From NCBI RefSeq assembly GCF_032854445.1, contig NC_088300.1, positions 52,860,984 through 52,924,983 of the forward strand: a stretch of 64,000 bases of DNA, read 5' to 3'. The notes under the pieces were generated by a model. The model was not told where the DNA came from. It saw only the letters and a program-made list of their open reading frames with translations, and made no database searches. A program made the translations under genes and the position numbers. The stretch comes from Liolophura sinensis. Lineage: Eukaryota; Mollusca; Polyplacophora; Chitonida; Chitonidae. This document shows, piece by piece, positions 28,713-63,517 of this stretch; the stretch's first letter is position 1, and each line of letters starts with the position of its first letter.

Positions 28713-31700
28713 TCACCGCTTTAGCCTAGTAAAGTTGACCCGGACATCTTTGTCAGGTTTGGGGGTTGGGAAAAGCGCCATATTATAGCTGTCCAATACA
28801 GTCCATTTGTATGACCGGCAAAGTTCCAATATGGTCAGTTTCATGGCCATCTTGGCGAACTCTTTCCCGGGACATGATCGTACTCCAGCCCCGAAGGGGA
28901 TGTAGGCAAACCTTTGTTTGTCCGGTCTGTCTGGATTATCCTCCTGCCATCTGTCCGGATCGAACTGCTCCCGCAATGGGATTGACTGGTTCTCGTGGGT
29001 CTCTCTAATACTGAATGAGACAGTCCAGTCCTTAGGGATAAGGTATCCCTGAAATGAGACAAAAAATATTGTCCTTCGTCGGTACAGGTGTTTAATATTT
29101 ATTTGATTGGTGTTTTACGCCGTACTCAAGAATATTTCACTTATACGACGGCGGCCAGCATTATGGTGGGTGGAAACCGGCCAGAGCCCTGGGGGAAACC
29201 CACGACCACCTACAGGTTGCTGACAGACCTTCCCACGTACGAATCGATACAGGTATAGTTATAATCAGAACAGAATGCTTGTTCGTTGTCTGAATATTGC
29301 GTCTATTGCATGCACTCATCTGCCATATCCAACCAAGAATATTTGATCCAAAGATTTTGACCTATTTACTCACAAATCGTGAATTACATGGAGGATATTC
29401 TGCCTACCTCACTACCCCGTGTGACTGATGGCTTCTGACGGCATGTACCGAGCCCCTGAATAATGGGGCTTTGGGTGAGGATTTTTCAGTTACGTGGTGA
29501 GGTGTGCTCTTTACCTCCACCCATAAAACTGACCACCGTGATTTAACTCAACAGTTCGTAGGAACGACTTTAAACACCAATCAAGTAAATAGCATCTGAA
29601 AACGTTTAACTGAAATCAATTACTTAAAAGCATCAATCTTGCATGGTATTTAATGGTGTAACTTACATCAAGCTCAAATGCTTCCTTGGCTGTCCTGTAG
29701 CCACCACCAACTGGAGGATATACTCGGAGCACCTCCTTCACAATGTTGTCCAGGTATGTCAGAGACTGCAGCCGTTGCAATCCAATGCTGGAGAGGGGAG
29801 CAGTGACGGGATCGTCTAAATAGTGATCTGTCAACTCTTCGTAGAGCTTCTTCATCATTCCTTGGTTCTTGCCCAGCAGAAGTATGGAATTCATGATGGT
29901 TGAGAAGAGGGTTCCAGTGCCAGCCACGATGATTTCCACGCTGGAATCGGTCAGCTTAGTCAGAAGTTCTTCTGTCACATTTCCATCCTCATCAAAATTC
30001 GCATCCTTTAGAATCGTCACCAAAACAGGAGGCAAGTTGTTATTCTTCACTTTGCCGATCAGGTTTTTTGCAAATTTTTTGGCAAATAGTTCTAAATGAT
30101 TTCTTGCTGTAACTGCCTGCAAAATACACACAATATATAATTATACTGCTGTAGCTATTAACGAAGAGGAAATATGGCATCGGTTTCTCTTTCGAGCATG
30201 ATACAAAATTAGAAATCATCTGTAATCGAGTCTAATCCAGACCAAAAAATAATGACAGGGAGATATTTTTTGTAATCTGAGAGCACTCTAATTTGTTCAA
30301 CAAAAATGTGCATTGAGCGAGCAAATAATTCCATGCGAACGTCTAATTCCATGTGCACATGCAGTTGGTTGTGTCGAATCGAATATCGAAGTCGACTGAA
30401 AATAATTGCTTCATATGATCTGTTCTTTTCGCTAGAATTGACACTTCACACTTTTCGATTTTACTGAATTCGACTAGACGATACGACATATTCGGTACAC
30501 TGCAACGATTTAGATTTCATAGTACGCCGATTAAACCACTCTTACCTTGTTGTAGGAGCTGCCAGGTAGATTCAACGGCAGACTGAACAGGTTCGCCAGT
30601 ATCGTAGCGGCATGGGACCCTAACACCTTTATATCCTCCTTTGATATGTTCGGACCGTACAGGATGGACATAACCAGCTGTAGGGTAAGCAATTGCACAG
30701 AATCAGCGAGCTCCACACGGCTCTGAGAACTCCAGTCCAGCAGGGCCTCTTGGATCATGGCGGCCATGCCGTTTCCGTAACTCTCCAGATGCCTTCCCGT
30801 CAACCCTTGCATAAACCCGCGCTTCCGGTATCTGTGAATTTTCCCTTGAGACTGAGACAAAGATTCAGTTCCTAGGAGAGTACGAATCCCTGAAGGGTGA
30901 ATGGCGTTTACAATCTTATCGTCGCCCTTAAGAATCTGCTTGAGATTGCTGGCACCACTGACTCGCACAATCGGGCGGAAAAACAAGTGCGTCTTGAAAA
31001 TATCTCCAAATTTATCTCTGCGTTCACGGAAAAATTCAACCTGAAAGACAAAAATGGAAAGTTTCACGCCCTTTGCGATCGAAACGATTATGAACGCATA
31101 CGCTGTGACAGTTAGTCTAATCAAAAGAAAAACCACAGTTTGTTCCCCTTAACTAATTGCAGTGTAACGCGGCGATGCGAAAAGCGGATTTCCTGTGGTG
31201 GCGTAGGTGGTAATGGACGACACAGTCCGATTTGCTTTCTTTCCAAACCGGGCACTAGAAAGCCACATTGCAAGAGCGCGAACAAAGCATCAATGAAAAC
31301 TCTTTGAAGTTATTTAGCAAAACTGAACTTATCGTATCATTTTCAAGATTATTCCCTTTATGTAATACTCCTTGGCCGTAATACTATATTTATGAAGTGT
31401 TTTACACAATAAACACAACTTATGAAGTTTTGTCAAAAAACAAACCATGTTTAACTTAGACAAAAAACTATCGAAAATTTTCTGAACTTAGGAAGTTTTA
31501 TGAAACCGGGCCCTGTAGTTTTCTGAAATTAACTTGGCACCTGTGAAACTTGCTGTCATGATACCACGTACGAATCAGTTGGGACTGGATTCAACATCAT
31601 AGAGCGAAGTTGTCAGTCTGCTTCTTTATGAACTCGTTATCGATGAACGTATTTGATGACCACCTCTAGGACTAAATAGTAAGCCATGGATCCAGATAAT

Positions 31701-42726: not shown

Positions 42727-45700
42727 ATGAAAATGGTGTTCGAAGTGTTCTGTAATATGTGTAGTAAGGAAGGATTTAAGGAGTGTCTTGGACGTGTCCG
42801 AAATTCCAGACACACTGTTCTCTTTTTGGTCTTCCTGTCCCTGCTTATCGATAATCTTCTACTGACAACCGTTGGTAAGTTCACGATATCAACCGATGGA
42901 ACATGGAGACACATGCATCATGTTATGACAAATGAGACATACCACATTCCTAACAGACTGTAAAGTGCTTTGATACACACAACGGGCATTAACACTTAAC
43001 ATTCTTCTAAGAGAACCGAACACCATGTAACAAAAAAACCCCTAGAATGTAATGGTTTAAAGTACATATCTGTCTATTTTGATGTGAAAAGCACTCCCTG
43101 GCCAAACCAACTGAAGCGGTGTTGGCGGCCTAGCCGATTGCCACCTCACCAACAAGTTCATAAATCATATGTAGTACGTCTGTGGATTTAAGTCAGAAGA
43201 TTTGTTTGGCATCTGGCGCATGGAGGTGGTTTACTTCGGTAACTTCACTTCCATCCTTATATAGGATCATCTCCGCCTTCATACAGGCTAAAAATTGTTG
43301 AGTAAGCCATGTAAATGTACATATATCTTGAAATACACTGTTTAACTGCAGTTGCAGTTCAGGACTCGAACCACAAGAAATCGTTATAAAAACCTTTTAA
43401 AACAAATTTCAACGAATATATTAATTTTAGTGAATAGAAGTGTTTACTCTGATCAATACAAGGCGACATTTATTAAATTTAGTTTGTATGTACTTGTTTT
43501 CAGTTCCCATAATTCCGGATTATCTCTTTGGAATCGACCAGAAAGAAGTCAAAGAGACTATAAAATCAATGAACCGGACACTGATATGTTTGAAAAATAG
43601 AACTAGTGGTCAACATCATCTTTTTCCTCATGAAAACAGCACCTTGACTTTAACACAGGAGTTACTGTCAAAGTCTATTCCGTTGGATATCATCAGTGAA
43701 AACAGCAAAGTTGGATGGTTATTCTCTTCCAGAGCGCTTGTGCAGATTGTAACAAACCCTTTCATTGGACCGTTGTCTAACAGGTAAGAGAGACAAATCT
43801 AAGAAACAATTTTATCAATGGATAGACTATAACGACATAAAATATATTTCAGAATTATGGTCTTTGTGCTCCATTCTTCTATATATGCGATTTGCCTTTC
43901 TTTGGTTAAGGGATTTATTTATGGCTGTGTTCAAAATAATGCATGGATCATTTTAAGAAGCTGACTTATTTTCCTCCAGCCACATTATAAGACAACCCTT
44001 TTGGCAATGCAGCAACAGTGATATATTGTTGAATTATCATTGCCACGAAGCGTTTGACGTAATATGAAATGAAAACTAAAAATGATAAACTTAGTACTGA
44101 TGATAGTGACATTCTTCAAATGCTCTCAAGAAAAAAATCCCCTGCCCAACGCTGCAGCCATTTATTTCTATATCCTTTCTTCTATGACGGTCACCGAGTT
44201 CACTCTGTGATGTCGTCAAATGCACATAGATACCTAGAGGGAAAATCCGAGGAAAGCGCCTTGAGTCTATGCGTCGAAACAGATATTCGTATCCCAGGCG
44301 CCAACCAAGATTTACGTTCCAGGTGTACGATATCTAGAAAAGACAAGTGAATAACATACATTGGTTGTGAAGAATGCTATAAGCATAGGTCATTTGTAAA
44401 GCGACGGTGGCCATGTTGGTTTCCTATTTTGAGCTTCACTTTGATCAAACATGATAATATTTCCAACTGTCTACAATGGTAACGTGTGTTGGAATGAATG
44501 TATACACGTCAAGATATATAGTCACCAGACAAAGTTCTTTGGTTTGATGTTGAGAATATCGACTTCCCTGTGGTGATCATGGGAAACTAATGACTCCTTG
44601 CCTCTTACATGCTATACCAGCTTTATTTAAAGGCGGTGTATAATTTCTTACATATTCCTTGAGGAACTGGTGTTTTAGGTTGTTCTGGAAATGGATCTTG
44701 CGATTATCGACGTGTAACGCCACTTTATAGTGTACTCCTCCTATGCGAATGTCGAAAACTCCATAATTGCGTTATGCTTTAGATTTATGTAGTTACATGT
44801 AGTGTTGGAGCCAAACCATTCCAAAAATGTAGCTTGACGGCTCTCAAAAGTAGGTTAGAAAGATTCTCCTTACATGTATGCTAATTTGTATATGTGTGCT
44901 ATATTATGTGTTGCATTTGAATATGGTTGTCTTTTTCACTTATTTGTGCCTTCTACTTGAATTAACTTCTCTATATTTCTTTGTTTCTGATTCTGAAATT
45001 TCTCAAGGAAACTGCGCAAGATTTTCTCTATAATCATGAACATATTTACAGGTTAAGAGAAGTGACCACGAACTGGACTGAATCTACCATGATAAATCAT
45101 ATATAGCTAAACGCCAGTTAACTTATCAGATATCCTTGGACACGGTCGTATCTTGGTAAATACTTATCATAATATTGAATTTTGGTTTCGTCAAGAATGA
45201 TAAGAAGTAGTTATATTTCTATACAAAGATTATCGTGCGGCTCCAAAGGTTACCGTTTCTCCAAACGTTACTGTTTCTCCAAAGGTTACCGTTTCGTTTA
45301 AGACATGAGCTTGCTCTTATTCCACCATATAAATCACATTTAAAGGTTAATAATTTTTGCCTTTCTTCTTTTTTCCTTCATCTGCTTTTCTGTTGTTTAG
45401 TTTTAATTTTTCTTTAATTATATCACAGCTGCTAAAGAGATTATTTGCATTTCATTTGATATTTCAAAGATGTAATAAGAAAACAATTAATCATCATTGC
45501 TAAAGGTTCTGTTAAAAACTTTAACGCTGTTAAGTGGATGTTCAGTTGCTATGGCAAGTCGGTTAATAACTTTAGTTGACTTTGCAGAAAAAATATGTGT
45601 TTTTCTTTTAGCTCCGGAGTAGACAAAGTTTGTTGAATAGTTATCAGACAGGCGAAAGTCTCTAAACGTTTTGTAGCCGTTGAAAAATAGTTGAAGAGAA

Positions 45701-48700
45701 ATTATGTGTGGCTCGCTTGTCAATCACATGTGAAATTGGTGCAGAGGTGGACGGCAAAGCACCTGTGCGGGGTCAGAATGCGCAAATAATTCAATTTCAC
45801 GGCAAGCGAACTGACAATGAAATAGCCTTGGGATGGAGAGCTGTGTTATCTGTCAGTTCCAGCTCAGTGCTGCTGTCGCATTAGAACGGCCAGTCTCCGC
45901 GCAGTGGTGTCCAGACAGCTATTAAAGGAAGCCTTTTGTCGGTTATAAAGTCTTAGAAGTGCATGAATGGGGCTGACCCGTGCTTCCCCAAGAACACAGC
46001 GTATCGGGTAATAAATGATCAATGTTCAATCGCGCCCTGCAAATCCTGTTAGAAAGGAAGTAACTTCAACATACTCTATTATATCCGCTGGTGTGGAAGT
46101 TCATAGGCTCGTTACATTAGGCGACACATAATAAGGTGGTTTAGAGAGTTTTATGAATGGACAGAATCTTCAACTAGAATTGTATAACTCATGTAGTATT
46201 ACATGAACAAGAGAAGGGATTCTATATTACACATATACATGTAGTTAATAACTGCTTAATCCGTCTGATCAGTGAGAGATGATGACTTAACAACAAGGCG
46301 TGGAGGTCCTCGCGAGGTACAATTGCAAACTGTTGCACGAAGTTCCATTTTATTCTTCACGCTGATTATTCTGGAATTGAAAGCACCATGTCTTTAGGAG
46401 ATGTATAAATTTCTGCTATCTATAAGTTACTGCTTTTTATAAGTTACTGCTATCTATAAGTTAGTGCTACCTAAGCATTTACTTGAATATTGAGAGGCAA
46501 ACAGGATTTCACTGATTTTGTATAACAGTTTGCCAACTATTACACTGTAGTCGTTGCTATGATTTTGGTCTCCATGCTCTAGTCTTTTGTGTTAAAAGAC
46601 AAATGTGCTTAAATAATTTCCCACATTCTTCATATACTTTCTAAGTTCTTTGGTGGTTTGTATTTTACGTCGTTTTGGGAATTGGCATTTCGATTGTTGA
46701 CCTGGAACGTCCTTATTGGTTGACGGATGGTATGCGAATGTCTGTTTCGACGCATAGATTACATAAAAGTACTTTAAAAGGTGCATATATTCATCTGTTG
46801 ACTTACACGTATATGATAATTATACAACATAAAAATAGAACAAAATCATAATTTCAGGGGTATAAGACACGGTTCCCTAATATCCCTTCGTAAAACATCT
46901 GGGGCCGATTCCATAAATTTGAACTTGATTATTATGCAAAGTTTACATTTTAAATATAGTTCAAATTGGGATTGGTTTGTCCTAACATAAGATTTTTTAC
47001 ATATTTAAACTTTTTTTACATTAAAAGTCCAAAAAAAAATCAATATAAATCAACTTTCAAATTTTGACACAAGTCAAAACTTTCTTCTGTGAATTAGGTC
47101 CAGTAGCTACATCGTCGTTTGCCTCACTTCTACTTTAAAAGGTTGGTCTTTTTTACGGTTTGTTTTCAGAGTGGGTTACTCTATCCTAATGCTATCCGGG
47201 TGCCTCATCATCTTATTGTCGTCCATAAGTAAGTTCATACGTTTATAGGTTATCTAGTCCTAGTTTGTTGGCTTCCTCTCAGGCCGTACGTGGGAAGGTC
47301 TGCCAGCAGCCTGCTGATGGTCTTGGGTTTCCACTGGGCTCCGCCCGGTTTCCCCCCACCTAAATGCTGGCCGCCGTCGTATAAGTGGAATATTCATGAG
47401 TACGACGTAAAACACCAATCAAAAAAATAAATCAATAGTGTTTGTCTTTTAGACACTTTAGGTCAACTCTTTGTCATATGTACTGTTATGTAGAAACACA
47501 CACAGATGACCAAAGAAAAATGAAGTTTATTTAGCATCTATACATATTTTTTTCGTATGAAACACCCATGCATAATTTACGGTTACTTTATTTATTTATA
47601 CTTGCACAGTTTATGAGTCCTCGAGTGTTTATCAAAAAAAAAAAACTATGAACAAGTTTTGATAAGATAATATTAAGACCTTATTATCTGTCAAGAACGT
47701 ACAATGTAGTACCATGCATTTATGATGCATTGAAACGCAGGTAGACGTACAATGGCTTTTTACGCACACATTGCTGTGGGGATGTTAAAAAGTTAGATCA
47801 TATCTATAACCATGTATTTCCTCTCTCTAAATCTAGTTTTCGCTGTCGGAGAAACGTTCGTACCTCTGCTAATAGCGCGTGCCATCCAAGGCTTTGGCTC
47901 AGCCTGTATGGCGGTATCAGGTGGGAATACAGTACCGTTAGTTTTTTTTTTGGTCTTCTTTCAATGCATACTCCTTACGCTCCCGTCGCTCGCTTTACAT
48001 CTCTTCCACCACTACTAGGCTTGTTTAGATTTAGCTTCACCATTGGTGTCCTAGCGCGGAACTATTTAATCAGGATTCAGCAATAAACTTGTCTCCTTTC
48101 CCTCTCATCACCGCGATCCCAGTGACCTCGGCGTTGTTCAGGATTTCTGTACAAAATTTGCTAGTGGCGGCAGTAATGTAAAATGAATGTAGAGAGCGAC
48201 GTATGCGCTGTAAGGAGTATGGTATCAGTGGTTCACACAGATGAGTTGTACTAGTTCTTGCGGAATGATGTAACGTTTTTATATCCAGATCTTTTCGGTT
48301 TCATGTCAGGTTAGCGAGGTGATGTGGGTTGTCACAGACACTACTTCCTCCTTGCGTAAAGCTGATCACCTTTGACTTGTTGGTTTCATTTAGAGTGTTG
48401 ATATCAATACGATTCTCTCTGTAATACATTTGCGAGATCACAGGCTTCACAAGATTTCAATACATTTTCTCAAAGGCAGAATACCATTACTTAAATATTA
48501 CTTAGTAACGAACCCAGTAGAGTTTGTTATATTAAGTGCAATCTGTGTGCCGTGTTTACTGTACTAGTATTGGACACGTCTTACATGTGCTAACCGCCAT
48601 TACCTTTGTTCTACAAACATGTATTGATTATTTTAGGAATGAGCATGATCGCTGAGAAATACCCGGATGATGTAGAAAGAAGTCGAGCAATGGGGATTGC

Positions 48701-51700
48701 TATGGGAGGCACGGCCGCCGGGACTTTGTGTAAGTTTGTAGGACAAATGGGAATAAGGAAGCCTTTTTTCAAAGTGGTGTTGATGTGAGAAGACGAACTG
48801 ATCATTTGAACCGGTCAAAATGCCCTTTATATAATGTAATGTTATAGTCTTACTTCAGTGAGGTAACCAAAGAGATTTGCTTTAAAACGGGTTGTCATTT
48901 TACTTATAAAGTAATGTTTAAAATACGGTAAATCAGAAATTGCCTAATCCTTGGGAAAAAAATAGCACTGAAAAATCGACAAAGCAGAATTTGACCAGTG
49001 ATGTCTACATTGTCAGTATCTGTTATGCCCAGATTTCGTTAACAGGGAGAAACTTTGGCAGTTTGGAATTCTATCAGAGGATACATAAAATGCACATGCA
49101 AATGTCTATGAATATTCAAGCCTTGAAAAAAATACTTCCAAAAGGAAACCATTAGGCTGACATAATTATTGTGCGAGAATGTTGCATAATTGGCGTAAAG
49201 AGATAGTTCCGAGGTTTATGAGTTCAACTGAATAAGAACAGCAAATGCCCAGTTGGTACTTTTCCATTTTAAACATAGGGACATGCATGTATACAGAAAG
49301 GAGTATGAATAAATGGGTGCCTCCTTCCAAACTTTTCGTCATTGTATATTATCACATATATGAAACACATGTTAGTCTGTCATCGCATTTAGCAGCCAAA
49401 TCATTATTGTGTAAAGCTTGATGAATGTTTCTGTTTCCCCAGTGGGTTACCCGTTTGGAAGTATCATGTACACGTTTGTGGGTAAGACGGCCCCATTCCT
49501 AATCATCTCCGCGCTGACAGCCACTGAAGCAGGTACGCGCTGTTGCGTGACGTAATCACTACGAAGGACATCCTGTCATAAGTACAATAACATTTTACCA
49601 CAAAAGCCTGATCATCATTGTGAAGATCATTAATACTCTGTCATGCAGCGTCGACTGATAATTAGGCAGCTTAACGATAAAGAAAATAGTAAAATAAAGA
49701 ATTTATCAGATCCTTTGATTTGTTTTTTAGAATTTTTCTAACCGACTTAAATGCCGAAAATTATTCTAAAAAAGTAAATCAAACTATTTTCCCGGAAATA
49801 TGTAATGGTCTTTCATCTAGAATGTGTTACATGTTAGTGTGTTCTTTTCCTCTAAATCCAGCTCCGGCTGGCAAGACTGTGATTTAAGTCAGAAGTTTTG
49901 TAGGAACCTGGCAAAAGCCGATGGATTGCTATAGGAGTTCTGGTTTGCTCTACCTACCTGTCCAGGCTGGTGAATAATTCTTGAGTGTAACGATAAACAT
50001 CATTCAACTCTAATCAATCAACTGGTGAATCAAAATGCTATGTGTATGGCATTTCCAGTTCGATATTTTCCCAGGAAAGCTTTAGTGTTCGTAATACATA
50101 TTCTCCTGAACTGTACAATTTCCTCTTTTACCTCCAGGTTTGCTGGCCACAGTACTACGCCCCTCTTTCCATGACAAGGTCAATATGCCAGTTTAAAACT
50201 CACTCGCCTTTCGAATCTTCGTTAGTTGTCATAAATATTTGTTTAAGGTCAACATATTTAACAATTATAACCTTCATGTGTTATTGCTGAAACATTATAG
50301 ATATGTTTATTGACCGTTTTCAACATATCACTTGTACATGATAAACACATAATGTGGATGAATAACGTATCACGTAATGATACTTTTTCATTTCCTGTTA
50401 TAGACGGCAAGAGACGGAAACTCACTTCCGGAACTTCTAAAAGACCCACTAATTTTAATTGCCGCAGGTAAATACCTAAGGTTCTACTGATCAAGTACTT
50501 TAAAGAAAAAAGAGAGAAATCTTCAGCTTTGAAGATCAGAAATAATTCATAGCCACTACGTACCGAATCACTGGGTTTAGAGCATGGAACATAGCTGGAA
50601 GTGTGTGCCCACTTGGTCATTTTTTGGTTTCACATATACTTTTTAAAAGACGCGTGACACTCATACTAAGACAGACAGGGATACATGTTATTTTATTTTA
50701 CAGGAATTTGGCTTTTGTCCAAATGAAGTGCTTGGCTAAATGCTGGCACCACTGATTCTTGTTGTAATTCATGTATCTTCACATCTAGTTGCGAATAGTA
50801 TACGGGTGTCAAACCAGTAGAAAATCCAAATTGCTGATCTAGATAGATGTACCAATGGAATGTTGACAAATATCAAACTGATTTCACTGAACCGTGACCT
50901 TCACGTCTTGATTTTGATTTTATTCATACTTTTGCGCGTTCGACATCATGGTGTCGTATGAGGAATGTTGTCCCTTAAAGCAAGTCATTTTTATCTTGTA
51001 TATTTTTTGGTTCTTTCAGTTGTTTGATATTTTTACCATTCTAGTTTTATTTTTCGGTCAACCTCTCGTTAAATACATTTACGTTGCAGTATTAACAGAA
51101 ATTTCTCTCCCGTAACACGTTCATGATGCAGCATTATTTATTTGTACACTGTCTTCAACGAACGAAACGACCATACGAGCATCGTCTTGTGCTTATTCAC
51201 TGTCACCAGGGCCTCACGTGAGAACAGTGAGGACTGGTGGAATCCAACGGGACAGTATCATGATGGAGACTAACAATTCTTGTTCTTTTGTACACGCGTC
51301 ATATACTGTATAGCTGAGCCCGTGGACGAATGTTCTGCCGTAATATTGAGCTCCCTTAACTTACACTGTGATTGATAAGTGCTCTGGCTTGTGTCCTGTA
51401 GGGTCGATCATGTTCAGCACCATGTCCATGGCTGTACTGGAGCCGACGGTTCCAATCTGGGTGATGGATACCATGAACATAGAGAAATGGCAGCTGGGTA
51501 AGCTTACCGATTTGTGAACATTACTAAGCCACGTGTTGTAATTCATCAAAAGACAAGAACACAATACAAGGTGGCGAGTAATACTCATGTGAAGATTGTT
51601 TCGAACTCAATTTAATTAATAGGGAAAGTGAAAACAGCACGGATCTTGAACGCCTATATATACCCATACTGTCACAACCACAGTTGATGCGTTATTAGTT

Positions 51701-54700
51701 ATTTGCATTAAAGATGATAAGTATTTGAAGATGACATTTACACATATATACATATAATTGCAAGGGATCCCATATAGCAACACTGGTTTTGAAAGTTTCA
51801 AGTGTATAAGATACCTGATCCTGTCAAATGTTATTAAGGTTCCTTTGCCATTCCAGGTTTGATATTCTTACCAGACAGCATTGGGTATCTTATTGGGACG
51901 AACATGTTTGGAGTTATAGCCCAGAAAATAGGCCGGTATGTGCTTTTTGGCCTATATTACATGCATGAAATACAAAGTCAAACTGGACTGGACGTTTTAC
52001 ATATCATTATACATTGAGTGTCTTACACATGTGAATGCATTACATATACCATACTCTTTGATGTTGTTTAGATGTTGTGGTTTTGAATAAATCGTCATTT
52101 CACCAGTTTAAGGAAAATTCTAATTCTATAAATATAACAAAGAAATACATGCACATGTAATAACATTTTCTTGTATACGCCGTAACATTTATAGGAAGAC
52201 ATTTATTTCCCTGTTCACAGTGTGTTTCAAAAAAAATTTTTGTTTGTTTTCCAGATGGATTTGTGCAATATCATGTCTGATTATGATCGCATTTTGCTTG
52301 GTTTGCGTGAGTATATATCTTTCCCAATATCTGATTATCTCCTTCATATAACTCAGCATGGTATGCATGTATGTCGTGTTGAATGACATCACCAAGTTTG
52401 TATCTGACCAGGTGTTAGTAATGCTCAACTGAGACGCTTGTTTGAGTACGCACTATTATTTCAATTTGCGCGTTTTGCAAACAAAAACAAAGGGGTTCTG
52501 GAATGATATCACTGAATAATATCACATGACTTAAAGCTGCACCATATTCAGGAAAGCCGCACCCTATTCGGGAAAGCTGTACCCTATTTGGGAAACCTGC
52601 ACCCTCGGGTGTAGCAAAATGATTTCAGGTAGGCCTACTTATATAACGACACATTTATTTGAATGACATATGGTTTTATGTCAAATAAAAATAAAATCCT
52701 TATTAAGGTTTTCTTACCGCGTATTGTGTTTTCCAATTCACAGATTCCTTTTGCCTTGAACCTTACTCATCTCATTCTGCCACATTTCGGGCTTGGTCTT
52801 GGACTCGGTAAGGAAACAAAAGCATGCGTCATAGTCATTACTTCTCTACAATATCTAATATGACTTTTTAGTCTAATAGATTATCCCAGCATATAGTCCT
52901 TAATCTTCTAATACTGCAGAACGTGCGAAAGGTCTTCGGCAAACCCGCGGATGATCGTGGGTTTCCCCCGGGCTCTGTTCGGTTTCCTCCCACTATAATG
53001 CTGGCCGCCGTCAAATGAGTGAAATATACGGCATAAAACACCAGTCAAATAAATGAATAAATCTAATACTGCAATATCATGACAACATGGTAAAGTAAGA
53101 AATGATCATTGAAACGAATCCCGTAACTGCTGTAGAGCTTGAACTAGCTTATCAACAGTGGTTTAGCAATTAGCGATATTCAGACATTTCACAAGCACCA
53201 ATTAACGTACCGGTATATTTATCTGTTTACTCTACATTTTAAGTTGAATTATTAACTTCATCTTATGTACATGTGGCTAAGTGAATTTACTGAGAAAAAA
53301 ACAATGTTGCATTCTCCGCACTGTTATACCGGCTCGTACCAGTATGTTGATTGCATTTTACTCGCAGGTATCATTGACGCCGCCATTATGCCCCACCTGG
53401 CCCTATTGGTTGACACACGTCATGTGTCAGTCTACGGAAGTGTCTACGCGATTTCTCAGCTAGGCGTCTGCTTGGGATACGCTCTTGGTAGGAACTTTGA
53501 CACCACAGTCCGTGTTTTAATTACAAAACTACATACATGTTAATAAAACAAGTAATTTTACCGTGGTGTGTACGCTATTTCTTAACTCGGCGTACTTGTA
53601 CTTTGGATACGCTCTTGGTAGGATATACTGAGCTACAAACCACATGTTAATTACAAAACCACATACAGGCTAACAAGAACAAATAACTGAATAGTTGTGA
53701 GAATATACAGCCCTTATCGAGTATGCAGAAAGAGTTTTTTCCCAGCTTCTGCATGTTGGCATTCTTCACACGTTTTCGCTGGTTGAAACATGTTAAACAG
53801 GGCAGATTAGGTTACCATTGCTTAATAAATGTCTTAAGATGTATGCTTTAATAAGGCAGAATTGGAATTTTTGCCCCTTGTTTGGATTCTGTTCTTGTTG
53901 ACTCTAAGAGCGCTTTACGTCGGGAGGTTTGTAATGTTCTCGATAATGAGCGGCAATTTCCTTCGGGGCTCTGTCGAGGTTCCACAAGACGACCTCTGCC
54001 ATGAAGACAATTCTTCAGTCTATTTTTCATCATAAATGAAATAAAGATATACATCATCTTAACCGTAACCTTTTCAGGTCCCTCTATAGGTGGTCAGGTG
54101 GTCAAAAAGATTGGATTCCCATGGTATGTATATACTATCGATGGCTCTAAAACTAATGTGTTTGCAGTAGGTTGTCCTTATATAGCTGTGTACAGGTATA
54201 CAGACGTGAGCAGTTCACTAAGTGAAGTAAAATGACAAGAGGACAGATTTCACTGATTACGTGTGATGATTTGTCAACTTTTTATATAATTGTAACACTT
54301 TCTATATACTTGTAACACTTTCTATGTACTTGTAACACTTTAATTATGTTACCTTTTTCATATTCACAAAATTACGCGTAATATAGGCAATCAGTATAAA
54401 GCAGGTTCTTAATCATCTTATCGCTTCCATGTAAAGCTTGTCTAATATTATAAAAGTGGTTAATTCAAGAAGACAAAAATAATATTAATGAATGCTAGGT
54501 TTACATATGCTTTGGTCAACCAAAAACGCAACCTGAAATTTACCTGCTTCCTGGTTTGATGCTAGGATACCTCCCAGAGGTGTAGTTCAGCTGAATATGG
54601 GCCTTTTTGTTGTGGTCGGCAAAAAGGTATGACAAGTGTGAACATGAGAAAGACAATAAGCTTTGTCATATACAAGAGCCTTTGGAAACAAAAACAAACT

Positions 54701-55952
54701 AACTGGCACTTAACACTTTCACCTTTGCATGTAAAGTAATCATATTGTCCTGCTGGGTCCTAGGTTGATGCGCGGAATGGCCATCCTGAACGTCGTATAC
54801 AGTCCGCTCTGTTGCTTCCTGAGGCCAACCCATCAAACCGACGAGACCTCGGTAAGCAACGAATATATGTCTTTCTTTGTTGATTCATTAAAGTAGATGT
54901 GATCCTTTAATTAGAAGCCTATACTACTTATAACACCTAGCAGACCTTATATATAGATGGACAGTAGGACATTTTTCTTTCCAAATGGAAAAGTTTATAT
55001 TTCTTTGACAGGTTATGACTAGTTATAAATTTGTCATTCCGAAAGAAAACTAAAACGAAAAATAGGGTGAGGATCAGCTTTTCCCAATCTATAGTCGCGG
55101 GTTTCAGTGTTAGAATTATCTCTTATTACCTGTTAGTTACCTGTTTAAGATTACTTAAATAATGCTGAAAAAAATTTCGCCTGTATGGACAAAGATGGTT
55201 ATATGACAGTGTGAGGTCCTTCAAGGTCACTGTAGTGTCTGGTTGCGGAATGGGTTAACTCTTATTACAGAGTGAAACGGCCACAAATGTGTCGTACTGA
55301 CGGTAAATATTCCCTAGGATAAATCGATGTCAACTGAAGGTTCCTACAAAATAACTAACCTGTTCTTATAGTTGGCCTAACCAAAACTATTCCGTGACAA
55401 GATCACAAATTGACAAAAAGGACCGTTTGGTTTGCCGAATCTCACAACAGGGTATTTAATAACAAAGACTATACGGTTGGCGTAAATTTGTACTAGGGAA
55501 GATGTAATGGTCGTGTGAACAGCTGTAAAGGTTCCGTACCGTCAATCCGACACATTTGGGGCTGTTTCATTCTGTAACTCTCGCAACACATATGTTGCTG
55601 GATGAGAGTTACCTGGACTCTGCAGCTACGTAGTTTCAGTTCAGTTGCATATCTAGTTTACTGTTAGGATTACTTTTGAGCTGTCTTCGTTTAACATGCA
55701 TGTGCTTAATCCTCCGGACGATTTGACTAAAAGAGTTGTTTAATATGTAGGCCCAAAAGTAAGCTTTCTATAGCACTGCATGGTTACCACATGTGTGACA
55801 GCGCAGTTTTATACCCAATTCTTGCCTACATGACGTCAATAGTTTCTCTGTTTTAGGCAATCCTTTCAGAGAATGGTATTCCAAAGTACTTAGACGAGGA
55901 CAGTCTACGTGACAGCAGTTTCTCATATAACCGTCTACACGAAGAAGACTGA
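42727..55952 (+). CDS. SLC18A-like: Vesicular amine/acetylcholine transporter-like protein (SLC18A family, MFS)
   Basis: Sixteen exons with GT/AG borders: 42727-42874, 43504-43783, 47170-47228, 47837-47920, 48637-48729, 49443-49532, 50138-50178, 50404-50467, 51402-51497, 51857-51935, 52255-52306, 52744-52807, 53368-53487, 54078-54123, 54764-54851, 55857-55952. They total exactly 1,500 nt, a 499-residue protein (human VMAT2 is 514). Family members exchange vesicular protons for cytosolic amines or acetylcholine. Visible: TM1 [19 protein letters not shown] with D42 and N43; a luminal loop with sequons at N73, N81 and N94; TM2 with [21 protein letters not shown] after TM4; TM7 [14 protein letters not shown] with E300 and W306; TM10 [18 protein letters not shown]11 [14 protein letters not shown]; a short acidic tail. 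Oddities: the TM2 lysine of VMAT2 is R126, the TM10 aspartate is Q414 and the TM11 aspartate is N448. Start chosen at the first in-frame ATG of the exon; a second ATG is two codons later. Substrate unknown. Confidence 0.93.
45241..45296. repeat. 18-bp tandem repeat, three units
   Basis: Units of TCTCCAAAGGTTACCGTT type inside SLC18A-like intron 2. Confidence 0.85.
46413..46472. repeat. Short tandem repeat of CTATCTATAAGTTACTG
   Basis: About three imperfect units, directly abutting a family C copy whose first bases (AAGTTACTGCTATCT) are the same motif. The array may therefore have grown out of that repeat's end. Confidence 0.75.
46625..46755 (+). repeat. Dispersed repeat family B copy
   Basis: ACTTTCTAAGTTCTTTGGTG, then TTTTACGTCGTTTTGGGAAT, GACCTGGAACGTCC, GGTTGACGG and TGTCTGTTTCGACGCATAGA. 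Good agreement with the 36410 copy. Confidence 0.75.
47268..47436 (+). mobile_element. SINE-A copy in SLC18A-like intron 3
   Basis: Sense SINE-A from GGCTTCCTCTCAGGCCGTAC through CGCCCGGTTTCC, AATGCTGGCCGCCGTCGTAT and an A-rich tail. It lacks the tRNA-like head. Same orientation as the gene. Confidence 0.88.
52536..52610. repeat. 20-bp tandem repeat in SLC18A-like intron 11
   Basis: Three and a half units of GCTGCACCCTATTCGGGAAA, with one to three differences per unit. Confidence 0.88.
52919..53061 (+). mobile_element. SINE-A copy in SLC18A-like intron 12, 12-bp target duplication
   Basis: Sense, 5'-truncated SINE-A (GGTTTCCCCCGGGCTCTG, then AATGCTGGCCGCC) with an (AAAT)n-type tail. Exact TCTAATACTGCA repeats flank it at 52907-52918 and 53062-53073. 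The clean duplication suggests a fairly recent insertion. Confidence 0.92.
53575..53690 (+). pseudogene. Degenerate duplicate of SLC18A-like exon 13 end and its donor
   Basis: A ~115-bp direct copy, offset by about 130 bp, of the end of exon 13 and the first part of intron 13. GGATACGCTCTTGGTAGGA is repeated exactly, and TTAATTACAAAACYACATAC recurs in the intron part. The copy of the coding part has a stop (CTTAACTCG for CTCAGCTAGG) and a 4-bp insertion, so it cannot replace the original exon end in frame. Confidence 0.8.
54281..54340. repeat. 20-bp tandem repeat, three units
   Basis: TCTATATACTTGTAACACTT repeated three times in SLC18A-like intron 14, right next to a family C remnant (54200-54285). 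Confidence 0.9.
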
Positions 55953-58208: not shown

Positions 58209-61200
58209 ATGGATGCAGGAACGCTTCCCCCAGAGTTGGCAGGCAATCGAGTAAGCGTGTTCATCATTTGAGTATTATCATTTTAGGCAAACTGTGTTAT
58301 AGTTCAAAGATTCTGTGAAGTTCTTTCTAAATCTGGTTGGTATTACACATTCCAAATTTATGGACTCTGACATTCTAGACAACTTTGACTTGCAGCTGCG
58401 AACTGACATCCAGTTCCCAGTTTTCTGAAGCGCATTATGCTAAGTAAGCTGTTAACTACCATGACATCATATGTTGTAGAGAGTCTTTACACTTACCTAT
58501 GTGCTAGTTAACATTGAGTAGCCTTCGTGAAACTGGGACCAGGTCACTCAGAGCAGCTTATGGCATATAACAACATACTGTGACACTGGAAGTAGTGCCA
58601 GCCTAGCTGTACCACTTTTCATTTTTCCCAAAAAAATGTAAAAAAAATCAGTAAAAAAAAAAAAATTAAAAGCAAAGTCAGACCAATTTAATGGCGTTAA
58701 CAAAATGACAGGGTTCCCACTCTACCTGGAAATCAGGGAAAACCTGGAAAAAATATTTCAGTTTTTCCAGTCATGGAAAAATCAGGGATTTAAAAAAAAA
58801 TGAATAAAATCAGGGAAAAATCAGGGAATTTTGTTTGCTGAAGGTGTTGAGGTTGCGTAATGCTGAAGTCCCCATTATACACACACACAGTCCCGTATTG
58901 TATGCTTGGTTATGGTGGCTTTTTAGTGTGGAAACTTGATCCTCTCTACATTTATTTCTTTCTTGCTTGATGGCTGTGTTGCATGAACTTTCGGTATATT
59001 ATAACCTATCAACACCTTTTAACACTAAAAGTCCAAAAGGGAGTAGCGCCCCTTGCCTCCAGAGCTGCAGCTGCTGTCTCCTGCTGCATATATGATGTAG
59101 CCTAGGCCTACATCATTGTGTAAGGAGATTGTAAGTTAAAAATACTACATGTCACAAAGCGTTAATGCCAATATGCATGGAGAATGACTTACATGTAGGT
59201 TGATTATGTTAATTATAACCCATGCTTCTGTGAAAGCAGGGCCAGGGATATTAATTTACAAGTACATGTAGGTCTGTCCATGCACCCATCATTCTTGCTA
59301 CATATGTATGTCTGTCCACCCTGATTTCACACTTCTGTTTTCAAACAGTACATGCAATTTCCCAACTTATTTCATTTTGACTAAAATAGGTATCCACATT
59401 TATTTCAGGAGTCCTCACAATATGTTTGAAAACAGAAGAGTTACATGTTTTGCATATCTAATGACCCCATTCATTTTGATTGGTTCTGTGTCAAACCAAG
59501 ATTGCTGAGAAGAGTGGATGCAAATTTTTTATATAGGTTGTAAATTTATTTTCTATTTTCTGATATTCTTTAAAATATGATCAGTTATTAGTGAAATGCC
59601 CAGTAGATCATTATAAAACCTGCTGAAACCACCATGCTCGCGTATAATGCCGATTGAGACACGATCCTGACCGTTCCAAAGTATAAACTTCCATTTATGT
59701 GTTTTAATCAAAGATGAAATAAAAAGAGGATGAACTTATTTAGAATTTCATTCGTTATCTATTAGCTTGTTTGCTGCTTGCTACATATGTGTTGTTATTC
59801 TGTTGTAACTTTTGCTTTTTGCTATGGATCCTGTGGTGTTGTATGCGCTCTCTCCTTGCTTTGGCCTGATCCTGTCCAAACATACTGTAGATATACTGAC
59901 GAACTAAAACCCTAGTCTGTCAATCTTCATGTCGTGCAAATTCCGTCAGGATTGGTTGCAAAAGGAAGAGTATAAAAACTGGATAAAGGAAGTACCTCAA
60001 GATAGTAGCAAGGCCATCTGTGAAGTCTGCAAGAAGACAATTGATTTAAGCAGCATGGGGCAGACAGCACTCACATCTCACATGAAGGGAAAAAACATGT
60101 TCAAATTCTTTCCCTGAAATCTGGAGCAACATCCCAGCCGTCTATAAAACTGTTCTGCGCAGGCGACAATCCCTCTGATACAGTACCGTCAACGTCATCT
60201 GAACCAAGCGAAGCGAGGGATGATGACTTAGCAACAATGGATATTGAGACTCCTGGAAGGAATCTGATAACCTCTTACATCAGTTCTAGGGCTGTCAAGA
60301 AAGCCGAGATCATATGGGCTCTGAAAACAATTATGTCTCGCTTCTCCTACAACAGTAATGCAGACATTGGGGATGTGTTTAAGGCAATGTTTCCTGACAG
60401 TAGCATAGCTAAGAACTTCAGATGTGGGCCAACAAAATTGGCATACCTTATTTGCTTTGGTACTGCTCCATACTTTATGGACAAGCTACTAAATAATGTG
60501 AGAGCAGCAGTAGGCTATGTTGTCAGCTTTGATGAATCACTTAACTCTGTGATTAGGATGGGACAGATGGATATCATAGTCCGCTATTTCTATAATGGTA
60601 AAGTTGTCTCTCAGTACCTAGACAGTCAGTTTTTGGAGCATGCAACAGCAAAAGATCTTCTGTCTGCATTCAAACAAGGCACATCAATCCTAAATCCAAG
60701 TAAGCTGTTACAAGTATCCATAGATGGGCCAGACGCGAACTTCATGTTTCTAAATGACTTATTGGATGACAGGAAGAAAGAAGATCCAGGTCTCCCTGGG
60801 ATTCTTCAGCTTGGCAGTTGTAGTTTACATGTAATCCATGGGGCATTCACTACAGGCATCCAGAAAACTGACTGGAATTTGGAAAAACTTTTGGTACCAT
60901 TTGGTACCTTTTTTGCCGATTCTCCCTCTAGGCGAGCAGACTTCAAAGACATCACGAAGACCGAGCTATTTGGGCTCCAGTTCTGCAGCACAAGGTGGGT
61001 GGAAGATGTTTGTGTAGCTGAAAGAGCTGTAAAGATATGGCCTAACCGGGTGACGTATGTGAAGGAAACTCTCAAGAAGCCCAAGCGGCAAATACCAACG
61101 GTTGCATCCTTTGTTAATCTCCAGGAATCTGTGGTCAGTGATCCACTCATCCTGGCAAAGCTAGAAGTTTTCATCTCCACAGGCAACCTTGTTCAGCCAT

Positions 61201-63517
61201 TCCTGAAGAAATACCAGACGGACAAACCAATGGTACCATTTATTACAGAAGATCTGTGTGATATCTTGAGAAGTCTCATGAGCAGGTTCATCAAGCCATC
61301 AGTTCTAACAGAGGCCACTACATCCTACAAACTGGCATCTGTTCATGTTGATGACCAGTCAAACCTCCTAAACCCTGACAAAGTAGATCCAGGCTTTGCA
61401 GCAAAAAGGCATCTTGATGAAGCATTAAAATCTAATGCTGCTTCTTCCCTAACCAAGAAGGAATTTCTTGTGGTTTGCCAGAAACTGTACCTTGCTATTT
61501 CACACAAGATCTTGGAGAGATGCCCACTGAAGTATTCCTTCGTGCGTTCACTCCAGGCTCTTGATCCTAGGCTGATGGTTGCTCACCAGCAGTCTGCTGA
61601 AGAGAAGTTCAAAATAGTGCTAACCAAACTTGTGGACAACAGATGGCGACAAGACCGTGAATGTGACGAGATCCTACGTCAGTATAAAGAACTCCTTGGG
61701 TTACTCCAGAGACACCACAAGTTGGAATGTGAAAACTTTGCAGTTCACACTGATCGAGTTGACGACTTCTTCAATTCAGTGATTGACCTCCCCCACAAGC
61801 CAGAACTAAAGGAACTGTGGGAATTGATGAAACTCCTTCTTACACTGTCTCATCGTCAAGCTGCTGTAGAACGAGGTTTTTCTATTAACAGTGACCTCCT
61901 GGCTCCAAATCTGAAGACCCAGACAGTTGTGGCGCAGAGAATGATTTATGACACCCTTGCCCTTGCGGAAACTCAAGTTTCCGACTTTGAGGTTACTCCT
62001 GGGTTACTGCAATCTTGCAGTCACGTGCAATTCCAGATACATAGCTCACCTGCAGGCAGAGAAGGACGAGCATGAGAAGCAGCGCAAACTGCAAAAGAGA
62101 CAAGCAGATGAAAGCAAGATGCATGATGCTGAAAAGAAACTCAAGATGTTGGAGCAAACCCATGAAACACTAATCTGTGATGCTGACAAACAAGCCTTGC
62201 AGGCAGAGCAGAAGAACAACTTCTCTCTCCTAGCAAAGTCAAATGCTCTGAGACACAAAGCCAAGGAATTGGAGAGAGACATTCAGCAACAGAAGGACTT
62301 TGTTAGCAACCTATCTGCTTCTCTACATCAGGTGTAATGTGAAGATTTGTGCATGTGAAGTGACATTGTGCATGTGGACAACAAATCAATGTGTAAATAC
62401 ACACATGTGCTCCCAACAGCTAAAGTTTGATTCTTTTCTCACGTTTACATGTATGTTAAATTTATCAAAGTTCATATACAATTAAGTATTGAGGTTTCCA
62501 GACACTTTCAGTTGTATATTGTGTCAAAATAAAGCAGATATTTTTCACATAATGTTCTTGCTGAAAGCAGATACTTCTCAGATTATGTTCATGCAGGCAT
62601 TTGGTGAAGAGAGGATGGTTATAAGGGGAGAAGGGAGGCCATTACCTGCCTGTGAGCACACTAAAAATACTGAATAAATAATGAATATAGTAACATAGCT
62701 TTCTTTTGTTTCTTTATATTCTCTACAACTTAGAGCTACTTATTATGTTTTTTATAAGAATAATCATCATTTTGAAAGTGAAGTGTTATTTTCAGTATTT
62801 ACGATATCCCATGCTGGAAGTGGTGACACAGTGGTCCCAATCATCAGAAGATTTATTCAGGGTGATTGGAATCCTAATTCTGGGACCTAATCCTCACTAA
62901 TTACGTCCCACTCCAATAGGGATTCCGTCAATTTTTAACACTGGAATCTGTGGTCATTTCATGAAGTGTAGTCATAAGTACATTGTAACATAAAAGAAAT
63001 CCTTATTTACCGATAATTAGAGGGAAGATTGTATCCTGGATTGATCAGGGAAAAGTCAGGGAAATAGCAGGGAATTTTGTTTTTTTGAAATAGTGGGAAC
63101 CCTGAATGAAGGTCAATGCACACACGTGATCTGTATAGCGTTAAGTACATAAACTGCAATGGATCTACATGAAGAATAAAAAACCCCTAAAACAATTTCC
63201 GGGCATCTCTAGCCATCTAGCATTGCAGAGCTTCCTGGGTCTAGGCCTCCCCTGGACCCTTGCCTTTTGTGCTAGGAGAGTCGACCGATGCCATACCATT
63301 TTTAAATTGCTTAAGATGTGCCTGACATAAAATGACATGTAGGCACTGCCACAATGCAGGCTGTCTGATGGTTCACTCGAACAATTCCACTGGTTTACTC
63401 CATGCACTCTGATTCAAAGTGATATCCACTCATGCTGTAATTTCTTCCAATTTACAGGCGGATATTGAAATGGGCTGGGCGATTAAAGCATACGACCATG
63501 CGGAGACGTACTTCAAT
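58209..63517 (+). CDS. PBDC1: PBDC1 (polysaccharide biosynthesis domain-containing 1), first two coding exons
   Basis: Coding exon 1 is 58209-58250 (14 codons, MDAGTLPPELAGNR) followed by GTAAGC. Coding exon 2 is 63458-63517 (20 codons, ADIEMGWAIKAYDHAETYFN), preceded by TTTACAG and followed by GTGAGT; both junctions are phase 0. Joined, GNRADIEMGWAIKAYDHAE lines up with the GND-PDIEMAWAM-HAEVYY region near the N-terminus of vertebrate PBDC1 as I remember it. The family is small (about 230 residues in human), conserved and poorly characterised. The rest of the gene lies beyond the right edge. A strong acceptor (TTCCTTGTCTGTTTAG, ending 58189) just before the ATG implies a separate upstream untranslated exon. 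The 5.2-kb intron is about 84% occupied by one hAT transposon. Confidence 0.85.
58709..58721 (+). repeat. hAT left terminal inverted repeat
   Basis: CAGGGTTCCCACT, exact reverse complement of 63092-63104. Confidence 0.92.
59929..62337 (+). pseudogene. hAT transposase (BED finger, RNase H-like core, coiled-coil tail) with two frameshifts
   Basis: Three overlapping frames form one gene of about 800 codons. Frame 1 (59929-60117) starts ATG and encodes a BED-type zinc finger with CEVCKK and a following SHMKGK. A net one-base loss at about 60085-60095 breaks it just before the second histidine; the next frame supplies GKKHVQ. Frame 2 (open to 62075; first ATG 60237) is the hAT core: FDES (catalytic Asp at residue 99 from that ATG), SIDGPDANF (second Asp), the hAT CSLH motif at 195-198, and AAVERGFS near its end, the usual hAT dimerisation signature with the catalytic Glu. 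A second shift at about 62010-62035 leads into a frame ending at 62337 that encodes a ~95-residue, highly charged coiled coil. Few lesions otherwise, so inactivation looks recent, or the shifts could be assembly errors. Confidence 0.88.
62528..62533 (+). terminator. Polyadenylation signal of the hAT transposase
   Basis: AATAAA 190 nt after the stop at 62337; a further AATAAA lies near 62674. Confidence 0.5.
63092..63104 (-). repeat. hAT right terminal inverted repeat
   Basis: AGTGGGAACCCTG, exact reverse complement of the left end; followed directly by the AATGA target duplication. Confidence 0.92.

What the first reader, a model, noticed from the sequence alone, without database searches (positions are those of the whole stretch)
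42727..55952. SLC18-type vesicular transporter with three coupling residues replaced
The assembled protein is complete and well conserved (TM1 Asp-Asn, TM7 Glu and Trp, the [11 protein letters not shown] signature). Three positions that form the charged proton-coupling network of VMATs differ: TM2 Lys is R126, TM10 Asp is Q414 and TM11 Asp is N448. In VMAT2 the TM2 Lys and TM11 Asp are reported to form an ion pair, and the TM10 Asp is needed for transport. VAChT, as I recall, also has Asn at the TM11 place but keeps the TM10 Asp. This may be a third SLC18A class with a new substrate, altered coupling or a non-transporting role.
Basis: partly seen in the sequence, partly recalled or inferred. 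Interest (0 to 1): 0.75.

Follow-up and report, generated by a model that had tools for sequence, protein, structure and literature searches.

The report
Divergent vesicular amine transporter in chiton
A chiton carries an extra, intact-looking gene for a vesicle-loading amine transporter in which two partner residues thought to help couple protons to transport, and part of the substrate pocket, have been replaced, which suggests that it loads a different small molecule or couples protons differently.

Summary
The gene is real: 16 exons, 15 of 15 introns GT-AG, 499 aa, closest to VMATs (49% to human VMAT2), in the chiton Liolophura japonica. R126, Q414 and N448 are there, but two of the three were matched to the wrong VMAT2 residues. 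VMAT2 Asp399 (TM10) is conserved here as D387. Q414 is VMAT2 Asp426 (TM11). N448 is VMAT2 Asp460, which is also Asn in this animal's own VMAT and VAChT and in human VAChT, so it is ordinary. The real changes are K138R and D426Q, the reported TM2-TM11 pair. They come with pocket changes not noticed before: N305T, V232T and a new acid, A337D (D325), in TM8. At 31 positions named in VMAT2 structure papers, the chiton's ordinary VMAT matches human VMAT2 at 31 of 31, the window protein at 21 of 31, and VAChT, whose substrate differs, also at 21 of 31. Best reading: a retained, long-diverged VMAT paralogue, probably still a vesicular proton/amine antiporter (D33, N34, E312, D399, Y341, R189 kept) but with altered coupling and an altered substrate. 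Orthologues, expression and transport are untested. New variant of a known kind.

The parts
42727..55952 (+). VMAT-type SLC18A paralogue, 16 exons (42727-42874, 43504-43783, 47170-47228, 47837-47920, 48637-48729, 49443-49532, 50138-50178, 50404-50467, 51402-51497, 51857-51935, 52255-52306, 52744-52807, 53368-53487, 54078-54123, 54764-54851, 55857-55952), 499 aa
   Evidence: VMAT2 chain 8ucj E=7.3e-138, 463.5 bits; Pfam MFS_1 179.6 bits
42850..42855 (+). D42-N43 = VMAT2 D33-N34 (TM1), conserved
43731..43733 (+). R126 (AGA) = VMAT2 K138 (TM2), changed
48723..48725 (+). T220 = VMAT2 V232 (ligand pocket), changed
51419..51421 (+). T293 = VMAT2 N305 (TM7; partner of D399 and of the substrate amine), changed
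51440..51442 (+). E300 = VMAT2 E312 (TM7), conserved
51874..51876 (+). D325 (GAC) = VMAT2 A337 (TM8, lines the ligand pocket), a new acid; Ala in 4 of 4 VMAT/VAChT comparators
   Evidence: pocket role of Ala337 from PMC11405867 (passage)
53376..53378 (+). D387 (GAC) = VMAT2 D399 (TM10, amine-binding Asp), conserved
53457..53459 (+). Q414 (CAG) = VMAT2 D426 (TM11), changed
54789..54791 (+). N448 (AAC) = VMAT2 D460; Asn also in own VMAT, own VAChT and human VAChT, so ordinary
54843..55865 (+). ETSAIL (466-471, split by the last intron): acidic dileucine-like motif aligned with the EKMAIL stretch of VMAT2; would fit vesicle sorting (role recalled, not tested)

Best explanation
The locus encodes a functional VMAT-type SLC18A transporter that arose by DNA-level duplication of a VMAT gene and has since changed its job. 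It most likely sits in vesicle membranes and exchanges luminal protons for a cytosolic amine by the alternating-access cycle of VMAT2. D42 (D33), E300 (E312) and D387 (D399) remain as the titratable and amine-binding acids. The TM2-TM11 pair K138/D426 is replaced by R126/Q414, so TM11 can no longer be protonated there. Q414 can still hydrogen-bond to the conserved Q130/N134 (VMAT2 Q142/N146), and R126 can pair with D42. A new acid, D325 (A337D), four residues before Y329 (Y341) on TM8, puts a further carboxylate in the substrate pocket, and V232T and N305T alter its base. I infer an amine other than dopamine or serotonin, perhaps one with two basic groups, with D325 possibly standing in for D426 as a proton site, and weak or no tetrabenazine and reserpine binding. 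Shown: sequence, correspondences, conservation, gene structure. Inferred: vesicular location, transport, substrate, the role of D325.
For: Intact 16-exon frame with canonical splice sites. 11 of the 12 exon blocks compared have exactly the length they have in the chiton's own VMAT; the twelfth (exons 7+8) is 105 against 102 nt and carries one extra intron. Of 31 positions named as functional in the passages I read of PMC10959523, PMC11405867 and PMC12721464, own VMAT keeps 31 of 31 (rest of the protein 255 of 406), the window protein 21 of 31 (rest 203 of 425), own and human VAChT 21 of 31 each (rest 169 of 416 and 148 of 398). Kept ones include D33, N34, F135, Q142, N146, R189, E312, W318, F334, S338, Y341, D399, D411, Y418, Y433. 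In VMAT2, D426N loses dopamine and serotonin uptake, prevents DTBZ binding and disrupts reserpine binding (PMC12721464), and D426N/A markedly reduce transport (PMC11405867), so Gln there is unlikely to be neutral in a VMAT background. Val232 and Tyr341 are suggested to help separate VMAT from VAChT substrates; col. 232 is Thr here, Ser in human VAChT (PMC11369146). The Asp399 equivalent is said to recognise the amine in all three human SLC18A proteins and is kept. An acidic dileucine-like motif and three NxS/T sites in the first luminal loop are present.
Against: No transcript, no orthologue, no assay. The branch is long (0.76 against 0.19 for own VMAT), and the window protein departs alone at 33 of 133 otherwise shared columns, so part of the pocket change could be general fast evolution. 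The 31 listed positions are only somewhat more conserved than the rest in the window protein (21 of 31 against 203 of 425, Fisher p=0.04). With an earlier, broader list of 37 positions that was partly recalled, the window departs at 14 of 36 VMAT-conserved ones against 104 of 285 over all VMAT-conserved columns, that is, no clear difference. I drew up the list of 31 after seeing the alignment. That both K138 and D426 are among the 4 changed of 17 family-invariant charged columns has a chance probability of 0.044: suggestive only. Human VMAT2 with D426N/A is impaired and VMAT2 N305Q was inactive in one study (PMC11405867), so loss of transport is possible. The effect of K138R is in no passage that I read (K138A reduces transport).
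Confidence: 0.5

Rival explanations
1. A VMAT with the usual monoamine substrates whose coupling network has drifted: R-Q replaces K-D without a change of substrate, perhaps with lower affinity or one fewer coupled proton.
For: D399, Y341, E312, N34, R189, S338 and Y433 are kept. N305A and N305D retain 17% and 70% of VMAT2 serotonin uptake (PMC12721464), so col. 305 tolerates some change, though N305Q was inactive in another study. In VAChT, D425N had no effect on vesamicol binding while D425A did (PMC11369146), so a polar residue can fill the TM11 place structurally. With the broader list the pocket is no more changed than the rest.
Against: A337D and V232T sit in the ligand pocket, and the 31 listed positions are all identical between human VMAT2 and chiton VMAT; D426N/A impairs human VMAT2. 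The genome already has a conventional VMAT.
Confidence: 0.27
2. A non-transporting or decaying paralogue (scaffold, regulator or gene on its way out).
For: Neutralising D426 abolishes uptake in VMAT2; long branch.
Against: 1500 nt open over 16 exons with all splice sites at about 50% protein divergence from own VMAT. A partial copy of exon 13 in the next intron has decayed, with a stop codon and indels, while exon 13 itself stayed open.
Confidence: 0.13
3. One reading: three coupling residues of VMAT (K138, D399, D426) replaced by R, Q and N.
For: The letters R126, Q414 and N448 are right.
Against: Asp399 aligns with D387 and is conserved; N448 aligns with Asp460, which is Asn in three other SLC18A proteins.
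Confidence: 0.02
4. Assembly or gene-model error at the two codons.
For: AGA (R126) is one base from Lys; no reads were available; HiFi depth of the assembly is 14X (PMC11068029).
Against: Asp to Gln (CAG) needs changes at the first and third codon positions; the assembly is built from HiFi reads; both codons lie inside exons with conserved flanks.
Confidence: 0.03

Closest known systems
VMAT2 / VMAT (SLC18A2, SLC18A1)
   Same: Best PDB match (463.5 bits against 273.6 for the best VAChT chain); 49% identity to human VMAT2 and to own VMAT; same exon lengths as own VMAT in 11 of 12 blocks; TM1 D-N, TM7 E, TM10 D, Y341, R189, W318 kept.
   Different: K138R, D426Q, N305T, A337D, V232T, S197A, S200A, N388H, F429V, Y182F.
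VAChT (SLC18A3)
   Same: SLC18A fold and the shared amine-binding Asp; hydroxyl residue at col. 232 as in human VAChT; same number of listed positions kept relative to VMAT2 (21 of 31).
   Different: 36% identity to own VAChT; lacks the VAChT residues at cols 37 (Y), 200 (D), 338 (F) and 341 (H); VAChT keeps K138 and D426.
portabella (insect SLC18-like)
   Same: Precedent for an extra transporter related to VMAT and VAChT (one sentence in PMC8566550, passage).
   Different: No portabella sequence could be compared here; two other SLC18-like genes of this genome on C7 are also unassigned.
SLC18B1 (polyamine transporter)
   Same: Same superfamily; weak match (50.4 bits).
   Different: Far more distant than VMAT or VAChT; its residues at these columns were not seen.

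Membership tests
SLC18A (VMAT/VAChT) family | Full-length similarity to SLC18A rather than to other MFS | tested here: met
   463.5 bits VMAT2, 273.6 VAChT, 50.4 SLC18B1, 33.3 NorA
VMAT subgroup | Closer to VMAT than to VAChT | tested here: met
   49% against 35-36% identity. In an unrooted 5-sequence tree the two VAChTs split from the other three with 100/100 support; a root on the window branch itself was not tested
VMAT subgroup | TM10 Asp (D399) with Y341 and N305 | tested here: inconclusive
   D387 and Y329 kept, N305 is T293
VMAT subgroup | TM2 Lys and TM11 Asp (K138, D426) | tested here: not met
   R126 and Q414; both columns invariant in 4 of 4 VMAT/VAChT comparators
VMAT subgroup | Proton-coupled monoamine uptake | not testable with these tools
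   Needs expression and uptake assay
VAChT | Tyr at col. 37 and His at col. 341 (VAChT Tyr50 and His338, PMC11369146) | tested here: not met
   Leu and Tyr in the window protein
Distinct third SLC18A class | R/Q shared by orthologues in related species and monophyletic | not testable with these tools
   No relative confirmed in genome contigs or viral contigs, which are not animal collections; placement among VMATs unresolved, AU p 0.19 to 0.82 for the three topologies over five models
portabella | Orthology to Drosophila prt | not tested
   No prt sequence was at hand

The most novel reading that the evidence does not exclude
A third functional class of SLC18A antiporter in molluscs, in which the TM11 proton site (D426) has in effect been moved to TM8 (D325): the protein loads vesicles with an unidentified amine, probably one with two basic groups (histamine-like or polyamine-like), that neither the chiton's VMAT nor its VAChT carries.
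Probability: 0.25. Interest if true: 0.68.

Novelty: new variant of a known kind. Interest (0 to 1): 0.42.

Why it matters
Two of the VMAT2 papers I read disagree on which acids couple protons (D33 and E312 in PMC12721464; Asp399 and Asp426 in PMC11405867), and the evidence in the passages I saw comes from mutating human and rat proteins. A natural VMAT relative that lacks the TM11 Asp and TM2 Lys, keeps the other acids and gains an acid in TM8 is a ready-made test of which sites are essential and of how substrate choice changes in this drug-target family. If it loads another amine, it points to an unrecognised transmitter or storage system in chitons.

Tried and rejected
A pseudogene was judged unlikely on the intact exons and splice sites. 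A tree to decide between a chiton-specific and an ancient duplication was built on 412 columns (those ungapped in the five VMAT/VAChT-type sequences; columns gapped in any of them were dropped); none of the three topologies is rejected under five models, and the best one puts the window protein with human VMAT2 at 63 (SH-aLRT) and 64 (UFBoot). Orthologue hunting in genome contigs and viral contigs gave 57 and 80 pattern matches, none confirmed, as expected for collections that are not of animals. Two weak hits of own VMAT on C12 and C13 (E 0.003 and 0.008) looked to me like other MFS proteins, monocarboxylate-transporter type, from their translations (no family search made) and were dropped.

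Literature: four searches that bear on mollusc SLC18 paralogues gave capped listings, 20 of 30, 15 of 78, 12 of 495 and 12 of 863 papers. No title or abstract start shown there describes such a gene. Of these papers only Goulty et al. (PMC10244343, passages) was opened for the question; a bivalve serotonin review (PMC8913902) that names VMAT was not. Merickel 1997, the source of the K139-D427 pair, is not held, so I rely on its description in PMC10959523 and PMC11405867. Papers seen as passages only: PMC10959523 (plus part 1 of section 9), PMC12721464 (plus section 9), PMC11405867 (plus section 7), PMC11369146 (plus part 2 of 3), PMC10244343, PMC11068029, PMC8566550. Structure prediction was not used: the tool takes proteins that the DNA gives letter for letter, and a spliced product does not clearly satisfy that, so I did not send it.
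Full report
What is there. The window holds a 16-exon gene at 42727-55952 (+) whose joined exons give 499 residues; 15 of 15 introns are GT-AG. It matches VMAT2 over nearly its whole length (8ucj, E=7.3e-138), VAChT much less and SLC18B1 weakly. G000 has 609,464,459 bases in 632 contigs, and its contigs C1 and C7 have lengths 96,433,062 and 60,359,117. The assembly paper of the chiton Liolophura japonica (PMC11068029, passages) gives 609,495,693 bases, 632 scaffolds, a longest scaffold of 96,433,062 and a scaffold_3 of 60,359,117. C6, which holds the window, is 82,489,547 here against 82,493,220 for scaffold_2 in the paper, so the held copy is a slightly different version, but the species is as good as identified.

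The other SLC18A-type genes found in the same genome. Searching G000 with the window protein and then with own VMAT (not exhaustive) gave: an intronless VAChT on C1 (60% to human VAChT); a conventional VMAT on C6 at 76.74-76.76 Mb, minus strand (65% to human VMAT2); and two more divergent SLC18-like genes on C7 at 43.65 and 41.35 Mb. The window gene is at 52.9 Mb on C6. It is 49% identical to both human VMAT2 and own VMAT.

The three positions. The human VMAT2 chain is the 514-residue protein, so positions can be counted in VMAT2 numbers; at the 31 positions I took from the papers the letters agree with the published residues. Asp399 falls in GMVDSS and aligns with GIIDAA of the window protein, D387: conserved. 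Asp426 falls in YAIAD and aligns with YAISQ, Q414: changed. N448 aligns with Asp460 of VMAT2 and is Asn in own VMAT, own VAChT and human VAChT. VAChT's equivalents of Asp399 and Asp426 are Asp398 and Asp425 (PMC11369146), and both are present there. What remains is K138R and D426Q. These two, with Gln142 and Asn146, belong to the TM2-TM11 network discussed in PMC10959523 and PMC11405867. In human VMAT2 D426N loses dopamine and serotonin uptake (PMC12721464).

How unusual. Of 133 columns shared by human VMAT2, own VMAT, own VAChT and human VAChT, the window protein departs at 33. The same leave-one-out count is 8 of 108 for human VMAT2, 4 of 104 for own VMAT, 6 of 106 for own VAChT and 16 of 116 for human VAChT. 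Among 17 shared charged columns it departs at four: K138R, E244T, D262E, D426Q. Drawing both K138 and D426 in four of 17 has probability 0.044, so the joint change is suggestive, not proof of a linked change.

The pocket. I listed 31 positions named as functional in the VMAT2 passages I read. Own VMAT matches human VMAT2 at 31 of 31 although the rest is 63% identical. The window protein matches at 21 of 31 (rest 48%). Own and human VAChT match at 21 of 31 each (rest 41% and 37%), and the two VAChTs match each other at 29 of 31. By this count the window protein stands as far from VMAT as VAChT, a transporter of another substrate, does. Changed in the window alone among these five proteins are K138R, Y182F, N305T, A337D and D426Q. 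A337 lines the pocket next to Ser338, which binds a dopamine hydroxyl (PMC11405867); here it is Asp. Kept are, among others, D33, N34, R189, E312, S338, Y341, D399 and Y433.

Against my reading. The window branch is long and its place among VMATs is unresolved. In the window protein the listed positions are more conserved than the rest at only p=0.04, and with an earlier, broader and partly recalled list the share of changed positions was about the same as elsewhere (14 of 36 against 104 of 285). Nothing here shows expression, location or transport. The alignment of the first luminal loop is poor, and own VMAT was assembled without part of it.

Mechanism (inferred). With D33, E312 and D399 kept, a proton-driven amine antiport of the VMAT kind is the most likely activity. 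PMC12721464 argues that protonation of D33 and E312 drives the switch, while PMC11405867 favours Asp399 and Asp426; the window protein would separate these views. With Gln at 426, either fewer protons are coupled or D325 takes the role. VAChT is a precedent for a different set of acids, with its Asp193 at VMAT2 Ser200.

The C7 pair shows the opposite pattern: both have Lys at 138 and Asp at 33, 426 and 460, but Ser at 399 and, by alignment of TM7, Leu at 312. Two lines in one genome have thus lost different members of the acid set.

Novelty. An extra SLC18A paralogue with altered residues is a variant of a known kind; insects already have portabella (passage). The capped listings of four paper searches show none whose title or abstract start describes such a mollusc gene; that is not a full literature search.

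Noticed in passing
window 53566-53686: Partial copy of the 3' part of exon 13 and the start of its intron, lying in intron 13, with TAA at the place of the Q414 codon and indels: a decayed tandem duplication.
   Followed up: partly
L002 (C6:76747268-76747497, minus strand): The chiton's conventional VMAT has two nearly identical TM4 exons in tandem, perhaps a mutually exclusive pair.
   Followed up: no
L004/L005 (C7:43.65 Mb, -) and L006-L008 (C7:41.35 Mb, +): Two related SLC18-like genes that keep D33, K138 and D426 but have Ser at the amine-binding Asp399 and Leu at E312; substrate unknown, possibly portabella-type genes.
   Followed up: partly
window 28713-31148 (-): Exons of a cytochrome P450 gene (Pfam PF00067 in three ORFs).
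   Followed up: no
window 60045-62075 (+): A 676-residue open frame with no Pfam match at E up to 0.001; its look suggests a transposon-derived protein, not tested.
   Followed up: no
L003 (own VMAT, exon 2 region): The luminal-loop part of own VMAT exon 2 changes frame, with a stop in the first frame: an unrecognised intron or an assembly error.
   Followed up: no
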